Shown here in pieces: positions 9,996 through 20,040 of a DNA stretch of 64,000 nt. The stretch is from assembly GCA_028284345.1 (NCBI GenBank), contig JANQRY010000008.1:62001-126000 (forward strand), read 5' to 3'. Under the pieces are notes generated by a model. It saw only the letters and a list, made by a program, of their open reading frames with translations, made no database searches and was not told the origin of the DNA. Position numbers and translations under genes: made by a program. The number at the start of each line of letters is the position of its first letter. Positions within the stretch are counted from its first letter, which is position 1. This DNA comes from Hyphococcus sp. (GTDB lineage: Bacteria > Pseudomonadota > Alphaproteobacteria > Caulobacterales > Parvularculaceae).

Positions 9996-10071
9996 TCCCC
10001 GATAGCTCAGTTGGTAGAGCAGCTGACTGTTAATCAGCGGGTCACTGGTTCGAGTCCAGTTCGGGGAGCCA
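9996..10071 (+). tRNA. tRNA-Asn (GTT), integration target of the mobile element
   Basis: The cloverleaf is complete: acceptor TCCCCGA with TCGGGGA, anticodon loop CTGTTAA with anticodon GTT at 10029-10031, T-loop GTTCGAGTC, discriminator G and encoded CCA. The last 15 bases are duplicated at 20026-20040, so the element uses the 3' end of this tRNA as attachment site and restores an intact tRNA on insertion. Confidence 0.97.
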
Positions 10072-11272
10072 ATGCCCATACCGGACCCTTTCCTATCAAT
10101 AGGTTATCACCAGTTTTTGTCCCATCTTCGATCATACCGAAATCGGGTGGGACACCTTCGCCCGATTTCGACGCTTTAATCAAGCGCTCCATGCCCGCGT
10201 CGGCGAGGCGCTTGCGATCTCGTTCTCGGATATAGCCCTCAAACACCTGCAACGAATCGTGGCCCGTGATGGCCGTCGCCTCGGCCGAGGAGCATCCCGC
10301 CTCAACCAGCATAACGGCCGCGGCTTTTCGCAATCCATGGGCCGAACAATGCGGCAGCCCGGCGGCCTTGCACCAGGATTTAAACCGGTTCCCGAATGAG
10401 GCCGCGCGATGTTTCGTACGCTGACCTTCGGGCTTTCCGTGCGCACCCCAAGGCTTGCCATGTTTCGTAGTCAGCAATGTCATATCACCCGTTTTCGTCG
10501 CGGCGATCGAGGCCGACAGCGCCGGATGAACCGGGATCGAAAGGCGTTTCCCGGTCGATCCGCGCGTTTTTTCCGGCGCAAAAATTAGTCGCCCGCCCTT
10601 CAGGTGCTGCGGCCCGATCCGGATAGCGTCACCGCGGCGCATGCCGGTGAACAGCATCAAATCGAGCGCTAAGCGCTCCTGCGTGCCGACCGGCCAATAC
10701 TCGCAATACTGCGCGATCTCGTCAGGAGACCATGTATGATAGCCGCCGCGTTTTCCCTTAATTGTCGGCACTTCTCGCGCCGGGTTTCGTTCGACAAAGC
10801 CATATTCAACACCGAATTGGAACAATTGGCGCAGCACTTTTATGAGCTCATTCGCAACGTGCGGTTTGTCCGCGCGACGATCGCGCATCGCTCGAATGTG
10901 TTTGGGCTGCATTTTGCGAACGGGAAGCGCCGCGCATTTTTCCCGGATCGGTTCGATCGTCAGCCGTCGCCGATACCGTGTGTCCGGACTGAGTGCGCGA
11001 TAATCCGCTGACTGATAATACTCAACACACATGCGATCGAACGTGCCGGCGGCGGGCAATTCGCCTTTCGTCGATTTCTCGCGCGGTTTTAGTTTTCCGG
11101 TCGTTGCGGCGGCGTAGTCAGACCAAAATTCTTCCGAAAACAACGGACCGCGCAATCGCAGTTTTCTCACGCCTGGCACACGGTAATAAATGCGCGCCGT
11201 CCCATATCGATCGTAATCGACGATCACATATTTCGGTTTCTTAGGCCTTTTCACACGCTTGCGCGATCCCAT
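10034..11272 (-). CDS. int: Tyrosine site-specific integrase of the element
   Basis: A 412-residue tyrosine recombinase that inserts and excises the element at tRNA-Asn. The N-terminal arm-binding region (KPKYVIVDYDRYGTARIYYR) is typical of alphaproteobacterial phage integrases, followed by a SAM-like core-binding domain (about 75-165). Catalytic residues are visible: Arg212 (TGMRRGDA), Lys235, His312 and Arg315 (HGLR), His338 (TGHDSL) and Tyr347 (FEGYIRERD). The reading frame runs through the att core into the antisense of tRNA-Asn, so the last residues are encoded by the tRNA gene. Its start overlaps the end of the HTH gene by 22 bases, implying co-transcription. Confidence 0.95.
   Translation of the reverse strand: MGSRKRVKRPKKPKYVIVDYDRYGTARIYYRVPGVRKLRLRGPLFSEEFWSDYAAATTGKLKPREKSTKGELPAAGTFDRMCVEYYQSADYRALSPDTRYRRRLTIEPIREKCAALPVRKMQPKHIRAMRDRRADKPHVANELIKVLRQLFQFGVEYGFVERNPAREVPTIKGKRGGYHTWSPDEIAQYCEYWPVGTQERLALDLMLFTGMRRGDAIRIGPQHLKGGRLIFAPEKTRGSTGKRLSIPVHPALSASIAATKTGDMTLLTTKHGKPWGAHGKPEGQRTKHRAASFGNRFKSWCKAAGLPHCSAHGLRKAAAVMLVEAGCSSAEATAITGHDSLQVFEGYIRERDRKRLADAGMERLIKASKSGEGVPPDFGMIEDGTKTGDNLLIGKGPVWALAPRTGLEPVTR
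10057..10071 (+). repeat. attL core, 3' end of tRNA-Asn
   Basis: CAGTTCGGGGAGCCA forms the T-arm and acceptor end of tRNA-Asn and matches 20026-20040 exactly. Bases on either side differ between the two copies. Confidence 0.92.
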
Positions 11273-11493: not shown

Positions 11494-11831
11494 CACTGCG
11501 TTCCACAGGTTAAATTTTGAGGCCTCGTCAACGCCGCCTCGATAAACTCGACGGCCGCGCGGAAGTCCGACAGAGCGACGCGGGCCTTGCGCCGAAATTT
11601 CCGCTTGGTCTGTAACGTTGCGCATTGAAGGCCGTCGACGATCTTGCGGGCCGGCGCAACGACGGTCTCAAGGGATTCTCGACTGGCCGCGGCGACGACG
11701 CCAAGCCTTGCGTCGTCGAGTTCATAAAGGCGCTCGGCGATCGCGAGGACTGCAGTCGCCACTTGCTTTAATTCCGGCAGCTCGACGATTAACGCCGCCT
11801 TTGCGCGCTCGAATTTCCGATGCTGGTCCAT
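11493..11831 (-). CDS. Hypothetical helical protein between tape-measure and HTH genes
   Basis: A 112-residue, mostly helical, Lys/Arg/Glu/Ala-rich protein that I do not recognise. Its ATG overlaps the tape-measure stop by one base (TAATG) and its TGA overlaps the next ATG by one base, so it is tightly coupled in a four-gene run. Position after a tape-measure gene would fit a chaperone or tail-assembly factor, but nothing in the sequence proves this. Confidence 0.65.
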   Translation of the reverse strand: MDQHRKFERAKAALIVELPELKQVATAVLAIAERLYELDDARLGVVAAASRESLETVVAPARKIVDGLQCATLQTKRKFRRKARVALSDFRAAVEFIEAALTRPQNLTCGTQ

Positions 11832-13651
11832 TATGCGAAACGCGGCCGGCGGCGCACCCGGTCGACTGCGTCCATGACGCTCACGGCGATCACCGGCGTC
11901 GTATCGGCGATGCGCTGATCGACGCTTTCGAGCCCGACATCGAACCTAAGTGTTTGATTGACGACTACGCCGCCGCCGAAGCCGTCATTAGGGACGATGG
12001 CACCGGAAGCGCCGGGCACGAAGAGTTCAGGCCCCTGCTCGCCAACCAGGAACGCTCGGCCCGCCTGGACCGGTCCGCCGCTAGCGCGTCCGCCGCCGAA
12101 AATCAGATTGAAGGCGCCGCCGTCGGCAGTTTGCAGACCAAGGGCGCCGCGGAAGATATCAAGCAGCCCTTCGAATGCGAGTTGCTGAGCCAACCGCTCA
12201 AGCGTCTTGCCCAGATCGTCGCCGAACGCGATCGCGCCGGCGAAGGCGACGGCGATCCCCTCGCCCGCCCGCTCGGAGGCGATGCGCCACCCTTCAGTCG
12301 CTTCACGAAGCTTCAGCATCTGGCCATTGACGCCTTCGAGCGCTTCGCTGATGTCGAAAAACTCGACCATGTTTTCAGCTTGCGGCAACAGCGCTTCGAG
12401 TTCACCGCGCAAATCCCGCAACGCCACCAGTGGCAGCTCGTTTAAGCGCTCTGCGTCTTGGAGGGCTTGCTGAATTGCATCCCCGGCGCGTTCGGCTTCT
12501 TCCGCAAAAACATTGGTCGATAATCGAGGTATGTTCGGAACGGTTATTCCGGTGAAATCGGGAACAACCGGATCGGATGGCGTCGCTGGAAGAGGTATAC
12601 CGGTTGCTCCTCGCGCTCGTGATAGTCTGGCCCTGACCTGCACCAGCTCCAAGGCCGCGCTTGCCGCGCGTTTTTCCAGAAATGCAATATCTTTTTCGAG
12701 AAGCTGTCTTATGCCCGGAACATTGCCTATTCCGGAATCGAGTTCTCCGCGTTTTCTGTTGAGAGCGTCGAACGCACCATCAAGGCGCTTTTGCAATATT
12801 TCTTCCCGCCTTCTGAGCGCTGATGAATCGGCGTCCGACCTGATCGTGGCGCCCGGAAAGGCGTCGAAAAATCGTTCGACTGATTCCGCAGCGTTCCCGA
12901 TCTTCGAGGCCACCGTCACCGCAGCAGACGCGATGTCGTTCATCAACGTCTTGAACCGGATAAACCCTTCAATGTTGTTAGCTACCGTAGTCTGAAGTTT
13001 CGTTGACAGTTGCTGGTTGAGTGTCGACAGAGTGCTTCGCGCCTGCTCCAACGCGGCAACGGCGTCGTCTCCAAGAACGACGCGAAGATCTCGCGCTGAG
13101 TGTGTCATACGGTCCAGGCCTTCAGCCCCGTCACGCACCAGCAGCGCCATGCGACGGGCGTCGTCGCCGAACACTTTCGTCGCCAGAGACGTCCTGATCG
13201 TCACGTCCTCTACGTCAGCGAGGGATTTGAACACCTTCCCGATCGCCTGTTCGTTCGTGTCGCTTACAGTGACGCCGAGTTCTGAAAATGTCTTCTCGTA
13301 TTCCTTGTTACCGCGCCGCGCCTCACCTAGACGGCGGGTGAAGCGGCCGACGGCGTCATCAAGTTCCTTTTGCGTAGATCCGGCAAGCACGGCGGCAAAG
13401 CGATATTGCTGTAACGCTTCCGCACCGATATTCGCGACTTTTGCGGCTTTACCGATCGAGTCGCCGGCGCGGATGGCGTTGGTCGCAAGCTGGTCGAGGC
13501 TGCGCACCGCCGCGGTTGCGCCGCCAGCGGCAAGAATGCCGGTGATCGACCGCTTGAACCCGTTAAGCGAATTCTGAGCCTGGCTGATCCCGCGTTTGAA
13601 CCCGCGTGGATTGGCGTCGATAAAGGCGGTAATCCGGTTGCTTGGAGGCAT
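11831..13651 (-). CDS. Phage tail tape-measure protein, short form
   Basis: A 606-residue tape-measure-like protein, which would set tail length and be packed in the tail tube. The N-terminus resembles lambda-family tape measures (SLDQLATNAIRAGDSIGKAAKVANIGAEALQ broken into the usual short helices); long helical and coiled-coil stretches fill the middle. The C-terminal motif SGGPVQAGRAFLVGEQGPEL (about residues 530-549) is a hallmark of these proteins. A GAGGATC ribosome site precedes the ATG. At roughly 1.5 angstrom per residue it would specify a tail near 90 nm (inference). No tail-tube or sheath gene accompanies it. Confidence 0.88.
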   Translation of the reverse strand: MPPSNRITAFIDANPRGFKRGISQAQNSLNGFKRSITGILAAGGATAAVRSLDQLATNAIRAGDSIGKAAKVANIGAEALQQYRFAAVLAGSTQKELDDAVGRFTRRLGEARRGNKEYEKTFSELGVTVSDTNEQAIGKVFKSLADVEDVTIRTSLATKVFGDDARRMALLVRDGAEGLDRMTHSARDLRVVLGDDAVAALEQARSTLSTLNQQLSTKLQTTVANNIEGFIRFKTLMNDIASAAVTVASKIGNAAESVERFFDAFPGATIRSDADSSALRRREEILQKRLDGAFDALNRKRGELDSGIGNVPGIRQLLEKDIAFLEKRAASAALELVQVRARLSRARGATGIPLPATPSDPVVPDFTGITVPNIPRLSTNVFAEEAERAGDAIQQALQDAERLNELPLVALRDLRGELEALLPQAENMVEFFDISEALEGVNGQMLKLREATEGWRIASERAGEGIAVAFAGAIAFGDDLGKTLERLAQQLAFEGLLDIFRGALGLQTADGGAFNLIFGGGRASGGPVQAGRAFLVGEQGPELFVPGASGAIVPNDGFGGGVVVNQTLRFDVGLESVDQRIADTTPVIAVSVMDAVDRVRRRPRFA

Positions 13652-13801: not shown

Positions 13802-15736
13802 TTATGCGCCGGCGTTCTTCTGCCATCCGCGATAGTCGACAAAGCCCGCGCCAAAACTCAGCCGAACGCGAATTTCGATGCCGTCGTATTCCCAACCCAT
13901 CCGTTGGTCGACGACCGGGCCATTTTCTTCATCCAGGTAGCCCCAGCGAAGGCCTTCCACCTGCGACGGCTCCGCTGCGAGATACCACGCCGCTGGGTCG
14001 GTAAGCCGCGGCTCTACAACAACGCCGAGATTGCTGAATACGTTTGCATCGGCTGTCTTCGCTGCCTGGACCGTAGAGACCAGCTTCTCCGCATCGGTCT
14101 CAAGCTGCGTCGGAACAACGAGGTAACGCGGCGTCGGTGCGATGCGTTCGCCAGCGAGCCCGGTTTGCTGCCGCATGGCGCTGCGAAGAACCGAGAGCGC
14201 TGCTTCGCTCGGAACCCCGCCGGGATCGACTAAGTTCGAATGCGCTGCCGAGAAAACGGCCTCGTTGTCAGCCATATTCGGATTTTGTTCGAGTTTCGCG
14301 GCCAGCAACGTTGATTCCTGCGAAATCGCTGTTTCCGCGGCATTGGTCATGAGATCGTCAAACTGTCCGATTGCGTCATTCACCAACGCCTGGTGCGTCA
14401 GCCCAACGCGCCGGCCATAGCGGACGAGCGAGATGGTTTCGCCGCTGTCGCCGATTGTGCCGTGGGTGATCTCTCCGTGCTCGTTGACTTGTTTCAATTC
14501 CGGAAACGCCGAACCGCGGATCGACTTCTGTTCACGGTAATCGACAAGATTCCGCTGCGTCGAGACAGTTTTGAGCGCCGGCGGCGCTAGGCGATACCGT
14601 TCGAGGAGGATTTGCCGGGCGGCGTCGCCGATTGTGCCGACAAAGTCACCGGAACCAAGTGCGCCGTAACCGGGGGCGGTGCTGCGTTGAAAGGCGCCGG
14701 CGTCGCCGAGCGCCGTTTTAATGATCTTGCTGGGCCGCATGCCCCTGGTGCTGACACCGGCGCGCTCAAGGCACTCTGCCGCCATATCGACGAAAGACCA
14801 GCCGCGGAAGGCTTCCGCTTCCGGTTGGGCCTCGTAGGTCGGGATGCACCGCTGGACGATAGCCGCCGCCATCGCATTTTGACTATGGAACGCATCGGCG
14901 CGTGAGTCGCTCATGCCCGGCTCAGTTACCTGCGTGTGCCCGGTATTTGCGTCATCGCGTTTGGCAAGTTCTTCGAGGATCGCGTCCTTGGCTTCGCTGA
15001 TGTCGACCTTTCGTTTGACGAGATCTTCAACGAAATCGGCATCCAGTTTGTTGCGGGTTGCGATATTGCGGATTTCTGCGTCGATGTCCGCGCGCGTTTG
15101 CTTCGCCGGCGCGCCCGGCGTGTTGCCATCAGGCATGGTCTTCGCTCCATTATTGGCCGGCGGTGCGGCGGGCGTGCGTTCCCGATATTCCAACGCACAT
15201 TCAAATTCTCGCGCCTGGTCTTCTCGGACCTGCGCGCCGGGATCCGCGCCGATCGGCACGGCGGAAATTTCCATGGGTTCCCAATCGACGGCGCGCCGAA
15301 GCTCGGGCTCGCCGTCGCGTTTTTCGATTTCATATTTGTGGACGCGGTATCCGACGCTGATGTTGCGGATGACCCCGCTTTGAACATCTTCAAAGATCGG
15401 CGTTACGTCTTCTCGATTCGAAAACCGTATGGTCGCAACGCCGCGACCGTTTTCGATCCGAGCCGATCCATCGACCACAACGCCGATGACGCTGTTGAGA
15501 TCGAAGCTGTTATGCGTATCCAGGAACGGCGCGCCCGAATTCAAACGATTGAGGCGAACCGCTTTGGCGGAGACTTCAAGTTCTTCGTCGAATTCCTCGC
15601 CGAAAAATTGCCGCCGGCGAACCGGGGCGCCGGTGGTGAAAATCACCTGGGCCGTGCGTGCTTTCTCATCAACGCTGTCGGCGCGAATCATAGCCTCGCG
15701 CCCCATCACCGGCATCATGGTTTTGCGGGCCGTCAT
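13802..15736 (-). CDS. Prohead protease/major capsid protein fusion
   Basis: A 644-residue fusion. Residues about 1-185 form an HK97-type prohead protease with plausible triad His75 (FLDTHNSF), Ser127 (IRNISVGYRV) and Glu156 (MEISAVPIGADPGA). Residues about 185-275 are a polar, helical, scaffold-like delta region. Residues about 280-644 are the major capsid protein, with the block LKTVSTQRNLVDYREQK and the C-terminal GIEIRVRLSFGAGFVDYRGW. Such fusions are known in phages, where the protease domain must release itself during head maturation. The ATG overlaps the preceding stop by four bases. Protease residues look intact, so the protein may be functional. Confidence 0.92.
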   Translation of the reverse strand: MTARKTMMPVMGREAMIRADSVDEKARTAQVIFTTGAPVRRRQFFGEEFDEELEVSAKAVRLNRLNSGAPFLDTHNSFDLNSVIGVVVDGSARIENGRGVATIRFSNREDVTPIFEDVQSGVIRNISVGYRVHKYEIEKRDGEPELRRAVDWEPMEISAVPIGADPGAQVREDQAREFECALEYRERTPAAPPANNGAKTMPDGNTPGAPAKQTRADIDAEIRNIATRNKLDADFVEDLVKRKVDISEAKDAILEELAKRDDANTGHTQVTEPGMSDSRADAFHSQNAMAAAIVQRCIPTYEAQPEAEAFRGWSFVDMAAECLERAGVSTRGMRPSKIIKTALGDAGAFQRSTAPGYGALGSGDFVGTIGDAARQILLERYRLAPPALKTVSTQRNLVDYREQKSIRGSAFPELKQVNEHGEITHGTIGDSGETISLVRYGRRVGLTHQALVNDAIGQFDDLMTNAAETAISQESTLLAAKLEQNPNMADNEAVFSAAHSNLVDPGGVPSEAALSVLRSAMRQQTGLAGERIAPTPRYLVVPTQLETDAEKLVSTVQAAKTADANVFSNLGVVVEPRLTDPAAWYLAAEPSQVEGLRWGYLDEENGPVVDQRMGWEYDGIEIRVRLSFGAGFVDYRGWQKNAGA

Positions 15737-16176: not shown

Positions 16177-16641
16177 CTATTTTTTTACGGGTCGCTTCCG
16201 AAGTTCAATTCGCTCTTTTGCCAGAGAAACGGCATAGTCGAGCTGATCCACGGTGACCGCCGGTCTTTCAACCAATTCGTAAGCCGCCCGGGCGCTATCT
16301 CTACCCGTCATCCCGGACATCATCCCGGCAACGATCTTTTCCAGAAATTCGGGATCCTGTACGCGCCCGCTTCCCTTACGCGCGCCGCGTCGATTCGGCG
16401 GTTTCGGTAGGTGTTTTTCTAGCCACCACCAGTGTCGTTCAATTTCACGCGGCGTCCATTCTTCGATCTGTAAGTCCGCAATTAACTGAGAAATCCTATG
16501 GCTCGGATTTTTACGAGCTGCTTTGATTAAATCGACCATTGAATCCATACGCTCGATCGCGCCGGATTTGCGCATCGCATCAATCAACTTCGACAACTTC
16601 CGCGCTGACGGTGTTTCAGTGTGCGAAATTGTATCCTTCAT
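16177..16641 (-). CDS. Hypothetical protein, element-encoded
   Basis: A 154-residue basic helical protein with a GGAGG ribosome site five bases before the ATG, so the start is secure. The middle holds a Trp-rich segment (REIERHWWWLEKHLP) and a Gly/Arg/Lys patch (RRGARKGSGR) suggesting nucleic-acid contact. I do not recognise the family. It precedes the capsid block by 55 bases. Confidence 0.7.
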   Translation of the reverse strand: MKDTISHTETPSARKLSKLIDAMRKSGAIERMDSMVDLIKAARKNPSHRISQLIADLQIEEWTPREIERHWWWLEKHLPKPPNRRGARKGSGRVQDPEFLEKIVAGMMSGMTGRDSARAAYELVERPAVTVDQLDYAVSLAKERIELRKRPVKK

Positions 16642-16816
16642 TCGCGCCTCCGCCGGCGCCGCAAAGAAATTCGGCGCGGCGGGTCCGCTGCGGTTGCGGA
16701 TTTTCGGGAGCTAACCTAGCCGCGCCGCTAAAGAACTTTCGTTGATTTGGCATCGAAGTCCACTGGCGAATCGCTGCAAACGCAACAAGCCTTCATGAAG
16801 AATTCAGTAATTGCCA

Positions 16817-17527
16817 ATGCCAGATCTGGTTGAAAACATCTCAACAGAATCGAAACGTGGAGCCAGCGTCGCATCGAGCGTTAGCACCGTCGTTATTTTT
16901 TACGTGTTTGGATTTGCTGAAATCCCTGGAGAAGTAATTCGACTACCGATTTTGAATATTCCTTTAAAGCAAGAAGTCGCTTTTCCGGTGATGCTCTCAA
17001 CAGTGATTTTTGTATATACGAGCTGGGCGACGCGGTTTTTTGTTGAGCGTCGACATTCCGATAAAATGATTCAAGACCGAACGGAAAAAGTTCTGCACAG
17101 CAAAACCCGCGCCAAAAACAACCTGAAGCAGGCAAGAGCTAATCTTGAAGCAGCGGACAAACAATTGGGAGCGGAATTAGACCGCAGACAGCAAAACGAT
17201 TTAAACAAATTGTTTATTGTCGACACCGATGCCGCGCCCGGATTCAAGTTTACGGCGCGGGAAAACCTCGATCAGCGCAGCCCGGTTTGGTCGCTTTGAA
17301 ATACGTTGCGGGAACGTCGATCAACATATCGTTCGATCGAGGCCGAGGAAAATAAATTACGAAGCAGTTATGAATTTCTATCGTCTGCAGACAGAGTATT
17401 CGATTGGCGCGAAGCAATCCTCTATATCCATTTCCCACGGCTCTCTTCACTATTCGCTGTTGTTGGATCGGCGCTAGCCATACTCCGAACGTTTTTCCCG
17501 GTTTTGCCTTGCTGTCCTATCAATTGA
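16817..17527 (+). pseudogene. Membrane protein with coiled coil, interrupted by an in-frame TGA
   Basis: The first part (16817-17299) encodes two membrane segments (about residues 23-45 and 56-78) and a charged coiled coil. The frame is stopped by TGA at 17297-17299, but stays open in the same frame to 17527 and encodes another charged helix plus a hydrophobic segment (LSSLFAVVGSALAIL). Together the parts look like one three-TM protein of about 236 residues. It is the only rightward gene in the element and its base composition is low in GC (26 of 60 in the line at 17041). It may be cargo damaged by a nonsense mutation, or a truncated but working 160-residue protein. Confidence 0.55.
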
Positions 17528-17588
17528 TGGGACATGTTTTACCTCGGGCGCCGCGGCGGAAGCCGCTTTTTTCCTCGATGGGTGATCC

Positions 17589-17855
17589 TCAGTCACTCTT
17601 GAAGACCGATTGTGTTTCCGGGATTCCGACGACACCGAGTTTCGTCAACGCCGCACGGCGTTTGTCCTCGTTCAGACTGCCTTCGAGCGAGTGCAAGCTC
17701 GCCTTTGCGGCGACCTTTCCTAGTATCGAAATTACGAGGCGACCATCGCGCGCATACTTAGAGACCATAGCGGCGGAAATACCGCATATCCTGGCAAATT
17801 CCGCTTTCGTTATGTATTTCTCCGACGAAGCCAAACCCTTAACCTGATTATTCAC
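17589..17855 (-). CDS. Helix-turn-helix protein, possible small terminase (Nu1-like)
   Basis: About 88 residues from a GTG at 17855; the frame is open further upstream to 17969, but that part looks non-coding. The HTH reads ITKAEFARICGISAAMVSKY, followed by ARDGRL and a helical tail (SLEGSLNEDKRRAAL). HTH proteins with this layout occur as Nu1-like small terminase subunits and as element regulators. In a capsid-encoding element a small terminase that redirects packaging is attractive, but a transcription regulator is equally possible. The start is uncertain. Confidence 0.6.
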   Translation of the reverse strand: MNNQVKGLASSEKYITKAEFARICGISAAMVSKYARDGRLVISILGKVAAKASLHSLEGSLNEDKRRAALTKLGVVGIPETQSVFKSD

Positions 17856-17971
17856 CCTTAACCGTTTTCGACACGCTGCAACTGCAAAACATTCGGGGAC
17901 AGAATTACCTGTCGTCGAGTATGCGCAGGAAGGACCCCGCTCCATGGATGAAACGAAATATGAACTCAAAA

Positions 17972-18786: not shown

Positions 18787-19560
18787 CTACTGGCGAACCG
18801 CCAGACGTTTCGATATCAGTGCTCCAGACGCATCCGGCGATACCAAGCTATCGTTCTTTGGGGAAACTTCTCCCAATCTCGTTCTCAAGCCAGCGGCGCT
18901 CTCCGCTAGCTTTTTCCGCAGCTGTGGAAGCGTCAGCTTTCCGCTTGCGAACCTCTTCGCCAGGAAGTCGGCGGCTTCCCAGCCGCCGGCCTTCTGTCGA
19001 AACTCAATCGAAGTGATTTGCAGCGCCTCGGCCGCTTGGCCGATTCGCATATTCTGATCGCGCTCGGCACGGCGTCGAGCTTCCGATCGATCACCTTCCT
19101 CTTCGTCTTTTCGCCTCTGAGGCGAAGCCGAAGAGGCGTTCTTAAGAGTGTCGCACTGGTGCGACTGATTTTGCGGCTTCAGTCGCGCTGGTGCGACTGA
19201 TTTTGACCTCTTAGTCGCACTAGTGCGACTGAACCGATCGGGGGTGTCGCACTGGTGCGACTTAACTGGCTCGCGTTTCGAAGCCGGTGTGTGAGTGATT
19301 CGGTACTTCGAAACGTTTCCCTTTCGCCCGTATCGACCGGCATGGGTGACCTTCAACAGACCCGCGCCAACCAGTTCCCGAAGCCCTCTAGCGGCCTGGT
19401 CCTTTGAAAGACCCGTACCCTCCGCGACTTCGCGACAGCCGACGGAGCGGTCTTCAGCGCCGCCGAACTTAACGAAAATCAATGCTTTCGCGGCGTTGCC
19501 TGATAGAGCCTTGAGTGCTGCGATCTCTGTCTCGAAGATCAGCGAGTATCGCTCCGCCAT
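18787..19560 (-). CDS. Winged-helix replication-initiator-like protein with origin iterons inside its gene
   Basis: A 257-residue protein. Residues about 8-90 form a winged helix (CREVAEGTGLSKDQAARGL as recognition region). Residues about 95-165 are a low-complexity charged linker encoded by DNA carrying four palindromic iterons. The C-terminal helical domain (about 170-257) includes ALQITSIEFRQKAGGWEAAD. This order, an N-terminal wHTH, an iteron-bearing linker and a C-terminal domain, is that of phage lambda O, which binds its own gene to start replication and recruits the helicase loader. The ATG at 19560 shares a base with the upstream TGA, fixing the start. No sequence relation to O is claimed. 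An autoregulator is the alternative. Confidence 0.72.
   Translation of the reverse strand: MAERYSLIFETEIAALKALSGNAAKALIFVKFGGAEDRSVGCREVAEGTGLSKDQAARGLRELVGAGLLKVTHAGRYGRKGNVSKYRITHTPASKREPVKSHQCDTPDRFSRTSATKRSKSVAPARLKPQNQSHQCDTLKNASSASPQRRKDEEEGDRSEARRRAERDQNMRIGQAAEALQITSIEFRQKAGGWEAADFLAKRFASGKLTLPQLRKKLAESAAGLRTRLGEVSPKNDSLVSPDASGALISKRLAVRQ
19110..19126. repeat. Inverted repeat beside the iterons
   Basis: TTCGCCTC and GAGGCGAA form a perfect 8-bp dyad around one base, 24 bp left of the iteron array and inside the same gene. A partial copy (GAGGCG) follows shortly after. The flank between them is pyrimidine-rich on the plus strand. It could be an accessory origin element; function is inferred only. 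Confidence 0.4.
19150..19261. repeat. Four palindromic iterons at 32-bp period, putative replication origin
   Basis: The 16-bp dyad GTCGCACTGGTGCGAC or a one-base variant occurs at 19150-19165, 19182-19197, 19214-19229 and 19246-19261. Starts are exactly 32 bp apart, about three helical turns, so all sites face the same side of the DNA. The third copy extends to a perfect 18-bp palindrome, AGTCGCACTAGTGCGACT. The first two 16-bp spacers share TGATTTTG. Because 32 is not a multiple of three, the copies are translated in different frames (for example SHQCD and TSATK), showing selection on DNA rather than protein. Confidence 0.85.
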
Positions 19561-19892
19561 CACGCACCGCTCGAGAAATGGTTCTTCAGGCTTTCCAGAT
19601 CGCTCCAGAATGCGTCGTAGCTGACGACGAACAGTTTTTCGAAGTCGCGTACAACGTCGCCGCGATAGCACTCACGCGCCATTTCTTCGGCTTCAGCGAC
19701 GATCTTGCCGGCATATGCGATTTCCCAGGCCTCGAGTTCTTTGAGCGGCTTCCTATCGCAATCCGCCCAGAGCTTTTTTACTTCCAGGATCAAATCCCGG
19801 CATTGCATCGTCTTCCGAAACGACCTAATGAAATCACCGTCGGCTTCGCAGAGTCGGCACTGCGCAGAATCATCAGTTAACCCGGCGTCCAC
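19560..19892 (-). CDS. Hypothetical protein at the right end of the element
   Basis: About 110 residues with an early CRLC motif and helical remainder (LEVKKLWADCDRKPLKELE); no recognised family. The frame is open up to 19985 (TTG), but that part crosses a strong hairpin and looks non-coding. The GTG at 19892 is a tentative start; an ATG at 19808 is another. Its TGA overlaps the initiator ATG by one base, so the two are coupled. Confidence 0.5.
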   Translation of the reverse strand: MDAGLTDDSAQCRLCEADGDFIRSFRKTMQCRDLILEVKKLWADCDRKPLKELEAWEIAYAGKIVAEAEEMARECYRGDVVRDFEKLFVVSYDAFWSDLESLKNHFSSGA

Positions 19893-19920
19893 CAGCGCCG
19901 GGTTTTCTTTTGTTCTTTTT
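19879..19920 (+). terminator. Strong Rho-independent terminator facing the right end of the element
   Basis: A perfect 9-bp stem (AACCCGGCG with CGCCGGGTT) and 8-base loop are followed by a T-rich run (TTCTTTTGTTCTTTTT) on the plus strand. It would stop rightward transcription about 100 bases before attR, insulating element and chromosome. Confidence 0.75.
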
Positions 19921-20025
19921 CGGCAGTTTGGTGGGACTTCGTTGTCAGAAAACGACGATTTGGGACGGTCCTTTTTGGCGTCCAACGCGCCCTCAACTAT
20001 ATGAATTATTTCTGCTTTTTGCCCG

Positions 20026-20040
20026 CAGTTCGGGGAGCCA
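20026..20040 (+). repeat. attR core
   Basis: Exact 15-bp copy of the tRNA-Asn 3' end. It marks the right boundary of the element; sequence from 20041 on is what followed tRNA-Asn before integration. Confidence 0.92.

What the first reader, a model, noticed from the sequence alone, without database searches (positions are those of the whole stretch)
19150..19261. Lambda-O-like origin: four 32-bp-phased palindromic iterons inside an initiator-like gene
Four near-identical 16-bp dyads (GTCGCACTGGTGCGAC) start at 19150, 19182, 19214 and 19246, exactly 32 bp apart. They sit in the linker-coding part of a winged-helix protein gene. The period is not a multiple of three, so each copy encodes different amino acids; selection acts on the DNA. 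The wHTH plus internal iterons plus C-terminal domain layout is that of lambda O and its origin, in a sequence with no evident O homology. It implies the element replicates autonomously after excision.
Basis: partly seen in the sequence, partly recalled or inferred. Interest (0 to 1): 0.9.

Follow-up and report, generated by a model that had tools for sequence, protein, structure and literature searches.

The report
In-gene replication origin of mobile element
A ten-kilobase mobile element in a bacterial chromosome carries a gene that seems to make its own DNA-replication starter protein, with that protein's likely four evenly spaced binding sites inside the gene, as in phage lambda; relatives tend to keep the arrangement but change the site letters together with the protein's DNA-reading helix.

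Summary
Four 16-bp dyads start at 19150/19182/19214/19246, exactly 32 bp apart, in gene 18787-19560(-). The predicted protein is a winged helix, a disordered linker holding the dyad-coded residues, and a helical tail. It matches O-like initiator profiles. It lies in a ~10.0-kb integrated element at tRNA-Asn.

All 4 full-length homologues found have in-gene repeats in the same linker, with different letters; two arrays are weak. In one homologue they sit at identical gene offsets (299/331/363/395). Over 54 loci (window included), spacings of the clear arrays fall mostly on whole helical turns, and repeat sequence co-varies with the recognition helix beyond the rest of the domain.

Best reading: a lambda-O-like initiator with its origin inside its own gene. 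In-gene, differing iterons are known from lambda, P22 and L (PMC8022706, passage). It differs from lambda: 3-turn spacing, no adjacent AT-rich tract, a hairpin there, no P-like gene recognised. Binding and replication are untested. New variant of a known kind.

The parts
19246..19261 (-). dyad 1 in gene order, GTCGCACCAGTGCGAC, gene offset 299
19214..19229 (-). dyad 2, GTCGCACTAGTGCGAC (perfect palindrome), gene offset 331
19182..19197 (-). dyad 3, GTCGCACCAGCGCGAC, gene offset 363
19150..19165 (-). dyad 4, GTCGCACCAGTGCGAC, gene offset 395
18787..19560 (-). initiator gene, 257 aa from ATG 19560 (ORF open from GTG 19671)
   Evidence: O-like PHROG profiles
19291..19545 (-). codes for the predicted N-terminal winged-helix domain (residues 6-90)
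   Evidence: (ten-residue pLDDT means 66-90 from residue 11 on)
19381..19413 (-). codes for GLSKDQAARGL (residues 50-60), taken as the recognition-helix stretch from its place in the winged helix (inference)
19096..19290 (-). codes for the predicted disordered linker (residues 91-155) that holds all four dyads
   Evidence: pLDDT under 50
19098..19136 (-). hairpin directly after the last dyad
   Evidence: z -3.8, stretch chosen by eye; automated scan weaker (z -1.5, 4 of 60 shuffles as good)
18871..19095 (-). codes for the predicted C-terminal helical domain, shared with other initiator-like proteins
19560..19985 (-). ORF 141 aa overlapping the initiator start; no family match at E<=1
10034..11272 (-). 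tyrosine integrase
9996..10071 (+). tRNA-Asn, attachment target
10057..10071 (.). att core CAGTTCGGGGAGCCA, left (3' end of tRNA-Asn)
20026..20040 (.). att core, right, exact copy
   Evidence: the same core bounds another element at this site in G004

Best explanation
Gene 18787-19560(-) encodes the replication initiator of a ~10-kb integrative phage-like element, and the four dyads in it are the element's origin iterons. A winged-helix dimer reads each dyad with its recognition helix (inferred). Dyads three helical turns apart put four dimers on one face of the DNA, giving a bent or wrapped complex as described for lambda O (inferred). At this point the gene codes only for a flexible linker, so it is free to carry DNA signals (supported by the disorder prediction and the different frames). 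Strand opening would follow beside the array, at the hairpin block after the last dyad, and the C-terminal helical domain or a host loader would bring in DnaB (both speculative). The site letters and the recognition helix change together between elements, so each element would recognise mainly its own origin (supported by co-variation, not by binding data).
For: Profiles: phrog_270 1e-6, O-like phrog_345 1.8e-5 and phrog_678 2.4e-5; BFVD rank 4 is named 'Bacteriophage lambda, GpO, N-terminal' (E 1.3e-4, but TM only 0.24-0.26). Layout winged helix / disordered linker / helical tail. 4 of 4 full-length homologues carry in-gene repeats in the linker; L008 has four at identical offsets with 8 of 16 letters different. 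Of 54 loci, window included, 27 have a repeat cluster that 0 of 60 shuffles matched. Spacings: 26 of 38 (16 loci, near-duplicates removed) lie within 1.5 bp of a multiple of 10.5 against 32% expected; 0 of 20000 uniform or per-locus-offset draws were as phased. Partial Mantel, repeat similarity against helix identity given the rest of the domain: r 0.43, 0 of 5000 (19 loci); r 0.27, 0 of 5000 (30 loci); without the three loci found by the dyad r 0.21, 67 of 5000 (16 loci) and r 0.22, 0 of 5000 (27 loci). GTCGC-N6-GCGAC occurs in exactly the 4 of 54 loci with helix SKD[QR]. Three relatives in named records were found by protein only: one, in Pseudomonas phage record PP003913.1, annotated 'replication protein O' and followed by an annotated primase, has four exact GGTACAGAAACTGTAC repeats at 22, 54, 35 bp; the second (Sinorhizobium, L166) has two exact copies 33 bp apart; the third (Tritonibacter, L167) is weak, 2 of 60 shuffles as good.
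Against: No binding or replication data. Pfam Phage_rep_O does not match the window protein at E<=1. No AT-rich 40-mer lies beside the array (best 0.50 AT within 100-350 bp; lambda 0.80). No P- or DnaC-like gene was recognised in the 11 element ORFs scanned; smaller ORFs were not scanned. 13 of 54 loci have no detectable repeat cluster and in 14 more 1 to 25 of 60 shuffles did as well, among them the full-length homologues L009 (1) and L011 (2). Repeats also keep a correlation with the rest of the domain given the helix (r 0.24, 52 of 5000; r 0.23, 0 of 5000), so descent is not fully removed. The three loci found by the dyad are close to one another (64-71% in the rest of the domain for the two pairs shown) and may count as one lineage. 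The element lacks recognisable large terminase and portal genes, so it may be decayed.
Confidence: 0.86

Rival explanations
1. The dyads are operators through which a winged-helix repressor or activator controls its own or nearby genes; no replication role.
For: The fold neighbours of the winged helix are mostly transcription regulators and dyads are typical operators.
Against: The four dyads lie about 300-410 bp inside the coding region; the rest of the genome has only two isolated near-matches. Initiator profiles lead in PHROGs. Four phased copies kept in the same place are unusual for an operator (own knowledge).
Confidence: 0.06
2. The protein is a small-terminase-like packaging protein and the dyads are a pac/cos-type recognition array (as the R sites of lambda cosB, recalled).
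For: Such sites are also repeats bound by a winged-helix protein (recalled); the element carries head genes.
Against: A separate TerS (phrog_83) with TerL stands beside the homologous gene in G009; a TerS-like ORF exists in the window, 17589-17969. The protein matches initiator profiles.
Confidence: 0.04
3. A partition (centromere) or copy-control site bound by the protein, helping maintenance of the excised form rather than starting replication.
For: Dyad arrays can also be centromeres; a centromere-binding protein appears among weak fold matches (AspA, rank 41).
Against: No ParA-type ATPase recognised among the 11 ORFs scanned; initiator profiles; O-annotated relative followed by an annotated primase.
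Confidence: 0.03
4. Peptide repeats or chance: the array is a by-product of coding.
For: Some hits of the same pattern in other genomes do look like in-frame coding repeats (L075, L077, L080; spacings 30, 30 and 27 bp).
Against: 32 bp is not a multiple of three and the four copies code in three frames; shuffles do not give it.
Confidence: 0.01

Closest known systems
Phage lambda O protein and ori-lambda (J02459)
   Same: N-terminal DNA-binding part, iterons in the middle of the initiator gene, four dyad iterons, palindrome after the array (sequence; z -3.1); similar block coding D-T..K-D-T just after the last iteron. The A3 profile aligns to O residues 27-118, but at only 4.3 bits (E 0.0028 for one sequence, filters off).
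   Different: Lambda iterons are 20, 24, 23 bp apart against 32, 32, 32; letters differ; lambda has an 80% AT 40-mer beside the array, the window does not; no P gene recognised here.
P22 gene 18 and phage L gene 18 (PMC8022706, passage read)
   Same: Distantly related O-like proteins, each with its own different repeats inside its coding region; the L repeat TGTCCAACGGA resembles the GTCC..GGAC dyads of several relatives here.
   Different: By the passage, P22 gp12, and L gp12 by homology, is a DnaB-type helicase; spacing phase and helix co-variation were not described in the passage read.
Iteron plasmid origins (PMC5043065, passages read)
   Same: Initiator-binding repeats in helical phase.
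   Different: There the repeats are mostly direct, bound by monomers and tied to an AT-rich region; here dyads inside the gene.
Capsid-forming PICI satellites (recalled; search listings only)
   Same: Short integrative elements with an initiator and head genes; the G009 element (9.99 kb, att repeat of at least 40 bp) has TerS, TerL, adaptor, capsid, protease and integrase by profile and a portal-like ORF by eye; no tail gene among the 9 of its ORFs scanned.
   Different: The window element lacks recognised TerL and portal and carries a tape-measure gene; helper dependence unknown.

Membership tests
Lambda O / O-like phage initiator | N-terminal winged-helix DNA-binding domain | tested here: met
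   (predicted)
Lambda O / O-like phage initiator | dyad iterons inside the initiator's own coding region, in the linker part | tested here: met
Lambda O / O-like phage initiator | profile match to O-like families | tested here: inconclusive
   PHROG O-like profiles 1.8e-5 and 2.4e-5; Pfam Phage_rep_O absent for the window protein at E<=1, matched by 3 of 21 domain relatives at E<=0.1 (best 2.2e-4); 10 of 21 also match a DnaD-like helicase loader profile, phrog_186
Lambda O / O-like phage initiator | initiator reads the in-gene repeats (only indirect: co-variation of helix and repeats) | tested here: inconclusive
   co-variation found; no binding data
Lambda ori proper | AT-rich unwinding tract next to the iterons | tested here: not met
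   best 40-mer 0.50-0.675 AT within 100-350 bp of the first repeat in the window and 4 homologues (window 0.50); the 0.675 (L009) lies 350 bp away; lambda 0.75-0.80
Lambda ori proper | P-type helicase loader gene with the initiator | tested here: not met
   no loader profile for the other 10 of 11 element ORFs scanned; a diverged or small one could be missed
Lambda O / O-like phage initiator | origin activity and binding in vivo/in vitro | not testable with these tools
   bench work needed
Iteron plasmid Rep (Rep_3 type) | two winged-helix domains of the Rep_3 profile | tested here: not met
   one winged helix in the model; no Rep_3 match for the window protein; 1 of 21 domain relatives touches Rep3_N at 0.0068
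Capsid-forming PICI | own head and packaging gene set with TerS, TerL and portal | tested here: not met
   window element: of head, packaging and tail genes only a capsid-protease fusion, a TerS-like ORF and a tape measure were recognised
Capsid-forming PICI | induction and tails from a helper phage | not testable with these tools
   bench work needed

The most novel reading that the evidence does not exclude
A broad family of integrative-element initiators, seen here in Alphaproteobacteria and one Pseudomonas element, uses origins inside or at the end of the initiator gene in which dyads stand at whole helical turns (2 to 6). In the window's subfamily no AT-rich tract adjoins the array; instead a conserved block and a long hairpin follow it, so strands may open by cruciform extrusion. 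Origin specificity evolves by paired change of recognition helix and dyads, such as SKD[QR] with GTCGC..GCGAC and NKD[ST] with GTCC..GGAC (4 of 5 loci, one by a single copy), keeping co-resident elements apart.
Probability: 0.3. Interest if true: 0.72.

Novelty: new variant of a known kind. Interest (0 to 1): 0.52.

Why it matters
In-gene origins are described for lambda, its Stx relatives, P22 and L in the passages I read. Here relatives supply a natural series of initiator-origin pairs in which place and helical phase tend to stay while letters change. That makes two questions directly testable: how an initiator and its origin change specificity together, and how strands open where no AT-rich tract adjoins the iterons. 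It also gives a practical way to find origins of small integrative elements and satellites: look for helically phased dyads in or just behind the winged-helix gene.

Tried and rejected
Relatives of the window protein in phage and plasmid records: none at E<=0.01; in viral contigs: none. The dyad pair in viral contigs gave one contig, L015, with two dyads in a gene that by eye is a winged helix but that the A3 profile did not match. A hairpin pattern gave 8 stretches in viral contigs that by eye hold no such gene and, in 199 related genomes, only G027 itself. Of 7 genome stretches found by the dyad pair, 3 are initiator-like (L076, L079, L081); L075, L077, L080 look like in-frame coding repeats and L078 was left undecided. 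Viral contigs searched with two relatives, L079 and L046: none confirmed. L079 in phage records: none. An empty attachment site was looked for in loci of 28 genus genomes and not shown: the right flank matched only the own genome, but G004 has another element at the same tRNA-Asn/parC site. The C-terminal domain alone (model mean pLDDT 91) had no convincing fold match and no Pfam family shared by two members; no helicase-loader fold is claimed. PDB sequence search: nothing relevant.

Weak points of my own statistics: the hairpin stretches were picked by eye; in the automated scan 7 of 30 loci fall under z -2.5 downstream against 1 of 30 in control stretches, and the window itself only reaches -1.5. 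Domain alignment A3 already contained L076 and L079. Loci are not independent by descent; the per-locus offset control and removal of three near-duplicates only lessen this. Spacings off the helical grid in the clear arrays: 25, 26, 35, 57 and two of 78 bp. The shuffles were cruder (two-base blocks). Rows dropped: of 67 loci, 6 lacked the domain; 6 duplicates and 1 frameshifted locus were dropped, leaving 54. Literature searched; I found no paper on this family in those listings, which does not show that none exists.

Full report
What was checked. In 100 dinucleotide shuffles of the window none had as many matches. The whole genome has only two other near-matches, both isolated. They lie in an ORF on the minus strand. 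The homologues point to the ATG at 19560 as its start, which overlaps the stop of the preceding ORF 19560-19985. Counted from that ATG the dyads begin at offsets 299, 331, 363 and 395, in frames 2, 1, 0, 2, and code for KSHQCD, SRTSAT, VAPARL and QSHQCD. Coding does not explain the array.

The protein. PHROG profiles name it a replication initiator: phrog_270 1e-6, O-like phrog_345 1.8e-5, O-like phrog_678 2.4e-5 (with the longer ORF). Pfam gives only weak winged-helix matches and no Phage_rep_O. The AlphaFold model from five homologues has a winged helix at residues 6-90, disorder at 91-155 and a helical domain at 153-230 (mean pLDDT 65); all four dyads fall in the disordered part. Fold matches are general winged helices; an entry titled GLPD-DNAD comes first in Foldseek but at an rmsd of 27. 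Among viral models, rank 4 is named lambda GpO N-terminal, at low TM-score. Of the 21 related domains, 11 match phrog_270 and 10 a DnaD-like helicase loader profile. The C-terminal domain occurs also behind a different winged helix in L044, which matches O-like phrog_391 at 4.6e-11, and in L033 and L036. Its own model is confident (91) but has no clear structural relative. That it recruits DnaB is a guess from position.

The element. The 3' end of tRNA-Asn (9996-10071) holds a 15-bp core repeated exactly at 20026-20040, 9,969 bp further on. Next to the tRNA lies an integrase. Inside are a tape-measure gene, a capsid-protease fusion and a TerS-like ORF; no large terminase or portal was recognised in the ORFs scanned. 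In G004 the same site, between the tRNA-Asn beside the same transporter gene (by eye) and parC, holds another element whose ends carry the same core, 13.4 kb apart, with an ORF that by eye is another integrase and another relative of this winged helix (L113). Integration is thus well supported; excision and replication are not shown. In G009 the homologue lies in an element of 9.99 kb at tRNA-Val (att repeat at least 40 bp) with HNH, TerS, TerL, adaptor, capsid, protease and integrase genes by profile and a portal-like ORF by eye; 9 of its ORFs were scanned and none was a tail gene. That looks like a capsid-forming satellite; the window element may be a satellite or a decayed prophage.

Homologues: same place, other letters. 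A search of 199 related genomes found the protein in 7, its own included. Four relatives are full-length (24-37% identity) and all four have repeats in the same linker: L008 four copies at 32, 32, 32; L009 copies at 64 and 32; L010 54, 22, 32; L011 33 and 22. Those of L009 and L011 are diverged: 1 and 2 of 60 shuffles did as well. The three partial matches L012-L014 had none. L008 has its four dyads at the very same offsets as the window, with 8 of 16 letters different (GTCCGCCAGGGCGGAC) and other residues coded. So what is kept is place and phase, and between these two also number.

The wider family. A profile of 21 winged-helix domains (A3) found relatives in 19 of 385 genomes of the class sample and 42 of 398 of the order sample at E<=1e-8, own genome included in each. 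Of 67 loci examined, 61 gave the domain, and 54, the window among them, remained after removing 6 duplicates and 1 frameshifted gene. In the 700 bp from the end of the domain, 41 of 54 had a repeat cluster and 27 had one that 0 of 60 shuffles matched. Of 30 loci with the better clusters, 14 arrays lay wholly inside the gene, 7 straddled its end and 9 lay behind it. The spacings pile up at 21-23, 32-33, 43-45, 52-54 and 63-64 bp, with exceptions (25, 26, 35, 57, 78, 78): after removing near-duplicates, 26 of 38 spacings from 16 loci lie within 1.5 bp of a multiple of 10.5 (32% expected), and 0 of 20000 random draws were as phased, also when each locus got a random offset. Lambda's own iterons are 20, 24 and 23 bp apart. 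Helical phasing is known for plasmid iterons (PMC5043065, passages read).

Protein and DNA change together. Repeat similarity follows recognition-helix identity after the rest of the domain is taken out: r 0.43 with 19 loci and 0.27 with 30, each 0 of 5000 permutations; without the three loci that the dyad itself had brought in, r 0.21 (67 of 5000, 16 loci) and 0.22 (0 of 5000, 27 loci). The rest of the domain also keeps a correlation with the repeats (r 0.24, 52 of 5000; r 0.23, 0 of 5000), so descent is not fully removed. The clearest case: a DNA-only scan of the genome collection (84,980 species by its description) for two window-type dyads gave 7 stretches. Three of them (a Rhodospirillales MAG, an Alphaproteobacteria MAG, Azospirillum agricola) have four or five dyads in or behind a winged-helix gene, and all three proteins have the helix GLSKD[QR] of the window, although the rest of the domain is only 26-30% identical to it; none of the other 50 loci has it. 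These three are close to one another (64-71% for the two pairs shown), so they may be one case rather than three. The domain most like the window's in its remainder, L008 (44%), has another helix and another dyad. Dyads of type GTCC-N7..9-GGAC occur in 12 of 54 loci, four of them with a single copy. Three relatives in named records were found by protein alone: one in Pseudomonas phage record PP003913.1, annotated replication protein O and followed by an annotated primase, has four exact GGTACAGAAACTGTAC repeats 22, 54 and 35 bp apart; one in Sinorhizobium has two exact copies 33 bp apart; one in Tritonibacter has only weak repeats.

Comparison with lambda. Lambda has four iterons in O with an AT-rich tract (PMC7466680, passages), here measured as an 80% AT 40-mer, then a palindrome. 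The window and its four homologues have, right behind the last repeat, a short block coding D-T/N-x-K/R (lambda D-T-K-D-T) and then a hairpin; no AT-rich 40-mer is near (0.50 in the window). Folded as single DNA strands, the five hairpins score z -3.6 to -7.2, but the stretches were chosen by eye. In the automated scan the homologues L008, L009 and L010 stay strong (-3.3, -5.0, -5.4), L011 is -2.2 and the window -1.5. So the hairpin is well supported for the subfamily and only weakly for this copy. Different iterons within the coding regions of O-like genes of lambda, P22 and L were already described (PMC8022706, passage), so the principle is known.

Verdict. The finding is a lambda-O-like initiator with its origin in its own gene, on a ~10-kb integrative element: very probable by comparison (0.86), unproven at the bench. 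It works like lambda O; I do not file it as lambda ori proper, because the AT-rich tract and a P partner were looked for and not found. New, as far as my searches go, are the three-turn phasing, the phasing rule and helix-dyad co-variation across the family, and the hairpin in place of the AT-rich tract.

Noticed in passing
L068/L069 (G009:C36 11967-21956): A 9.99-kb element at tRNA-Val with initiator, HNH, TerS, TerL, adaptor, HK97-type capsid, protease and integrase by profile, a portal-like ORF by eye, and no tail gene among the 9 ORFs scanned; resembles a capsid-forming satellite. G005 (L073) looks alike by eye, beside similar sugar-nucleotide genes.
   Followed up: partly
window 11831-13651 and 13802-15736: The window element carries a tape-measure gene and a capsid-protease fusion (phrog_4523, 7e-189) but no recognised portal or large terminase; satellite or decayed prophage.
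   Followed up: partly
L163 5209-18707: tRNA-Asn/parC is reused as an integration site: in G004 a different 13.4-kb element with a winged-helix relative fills it.
   Followed up: partly
L015 1173-1242: A viral contig has two GTCGCACCGGTGCGAC dyads 54 bp apart inside a gene that by eye is a winged helix outside the A3 family, perhaps convergent.
   Followed up: no
L038, L036: Winged-helix genes of another type that share the C-terminal domain also show close in-gene repeats (65, 43 and 22, 36 bp, no shuffle control).
   Followed up: no
window 16641-17589: A stretch of about 950 bp in the element without an assigned gene, except an unscanned plus-strand ORF 16811-17299.
   Followed up: no
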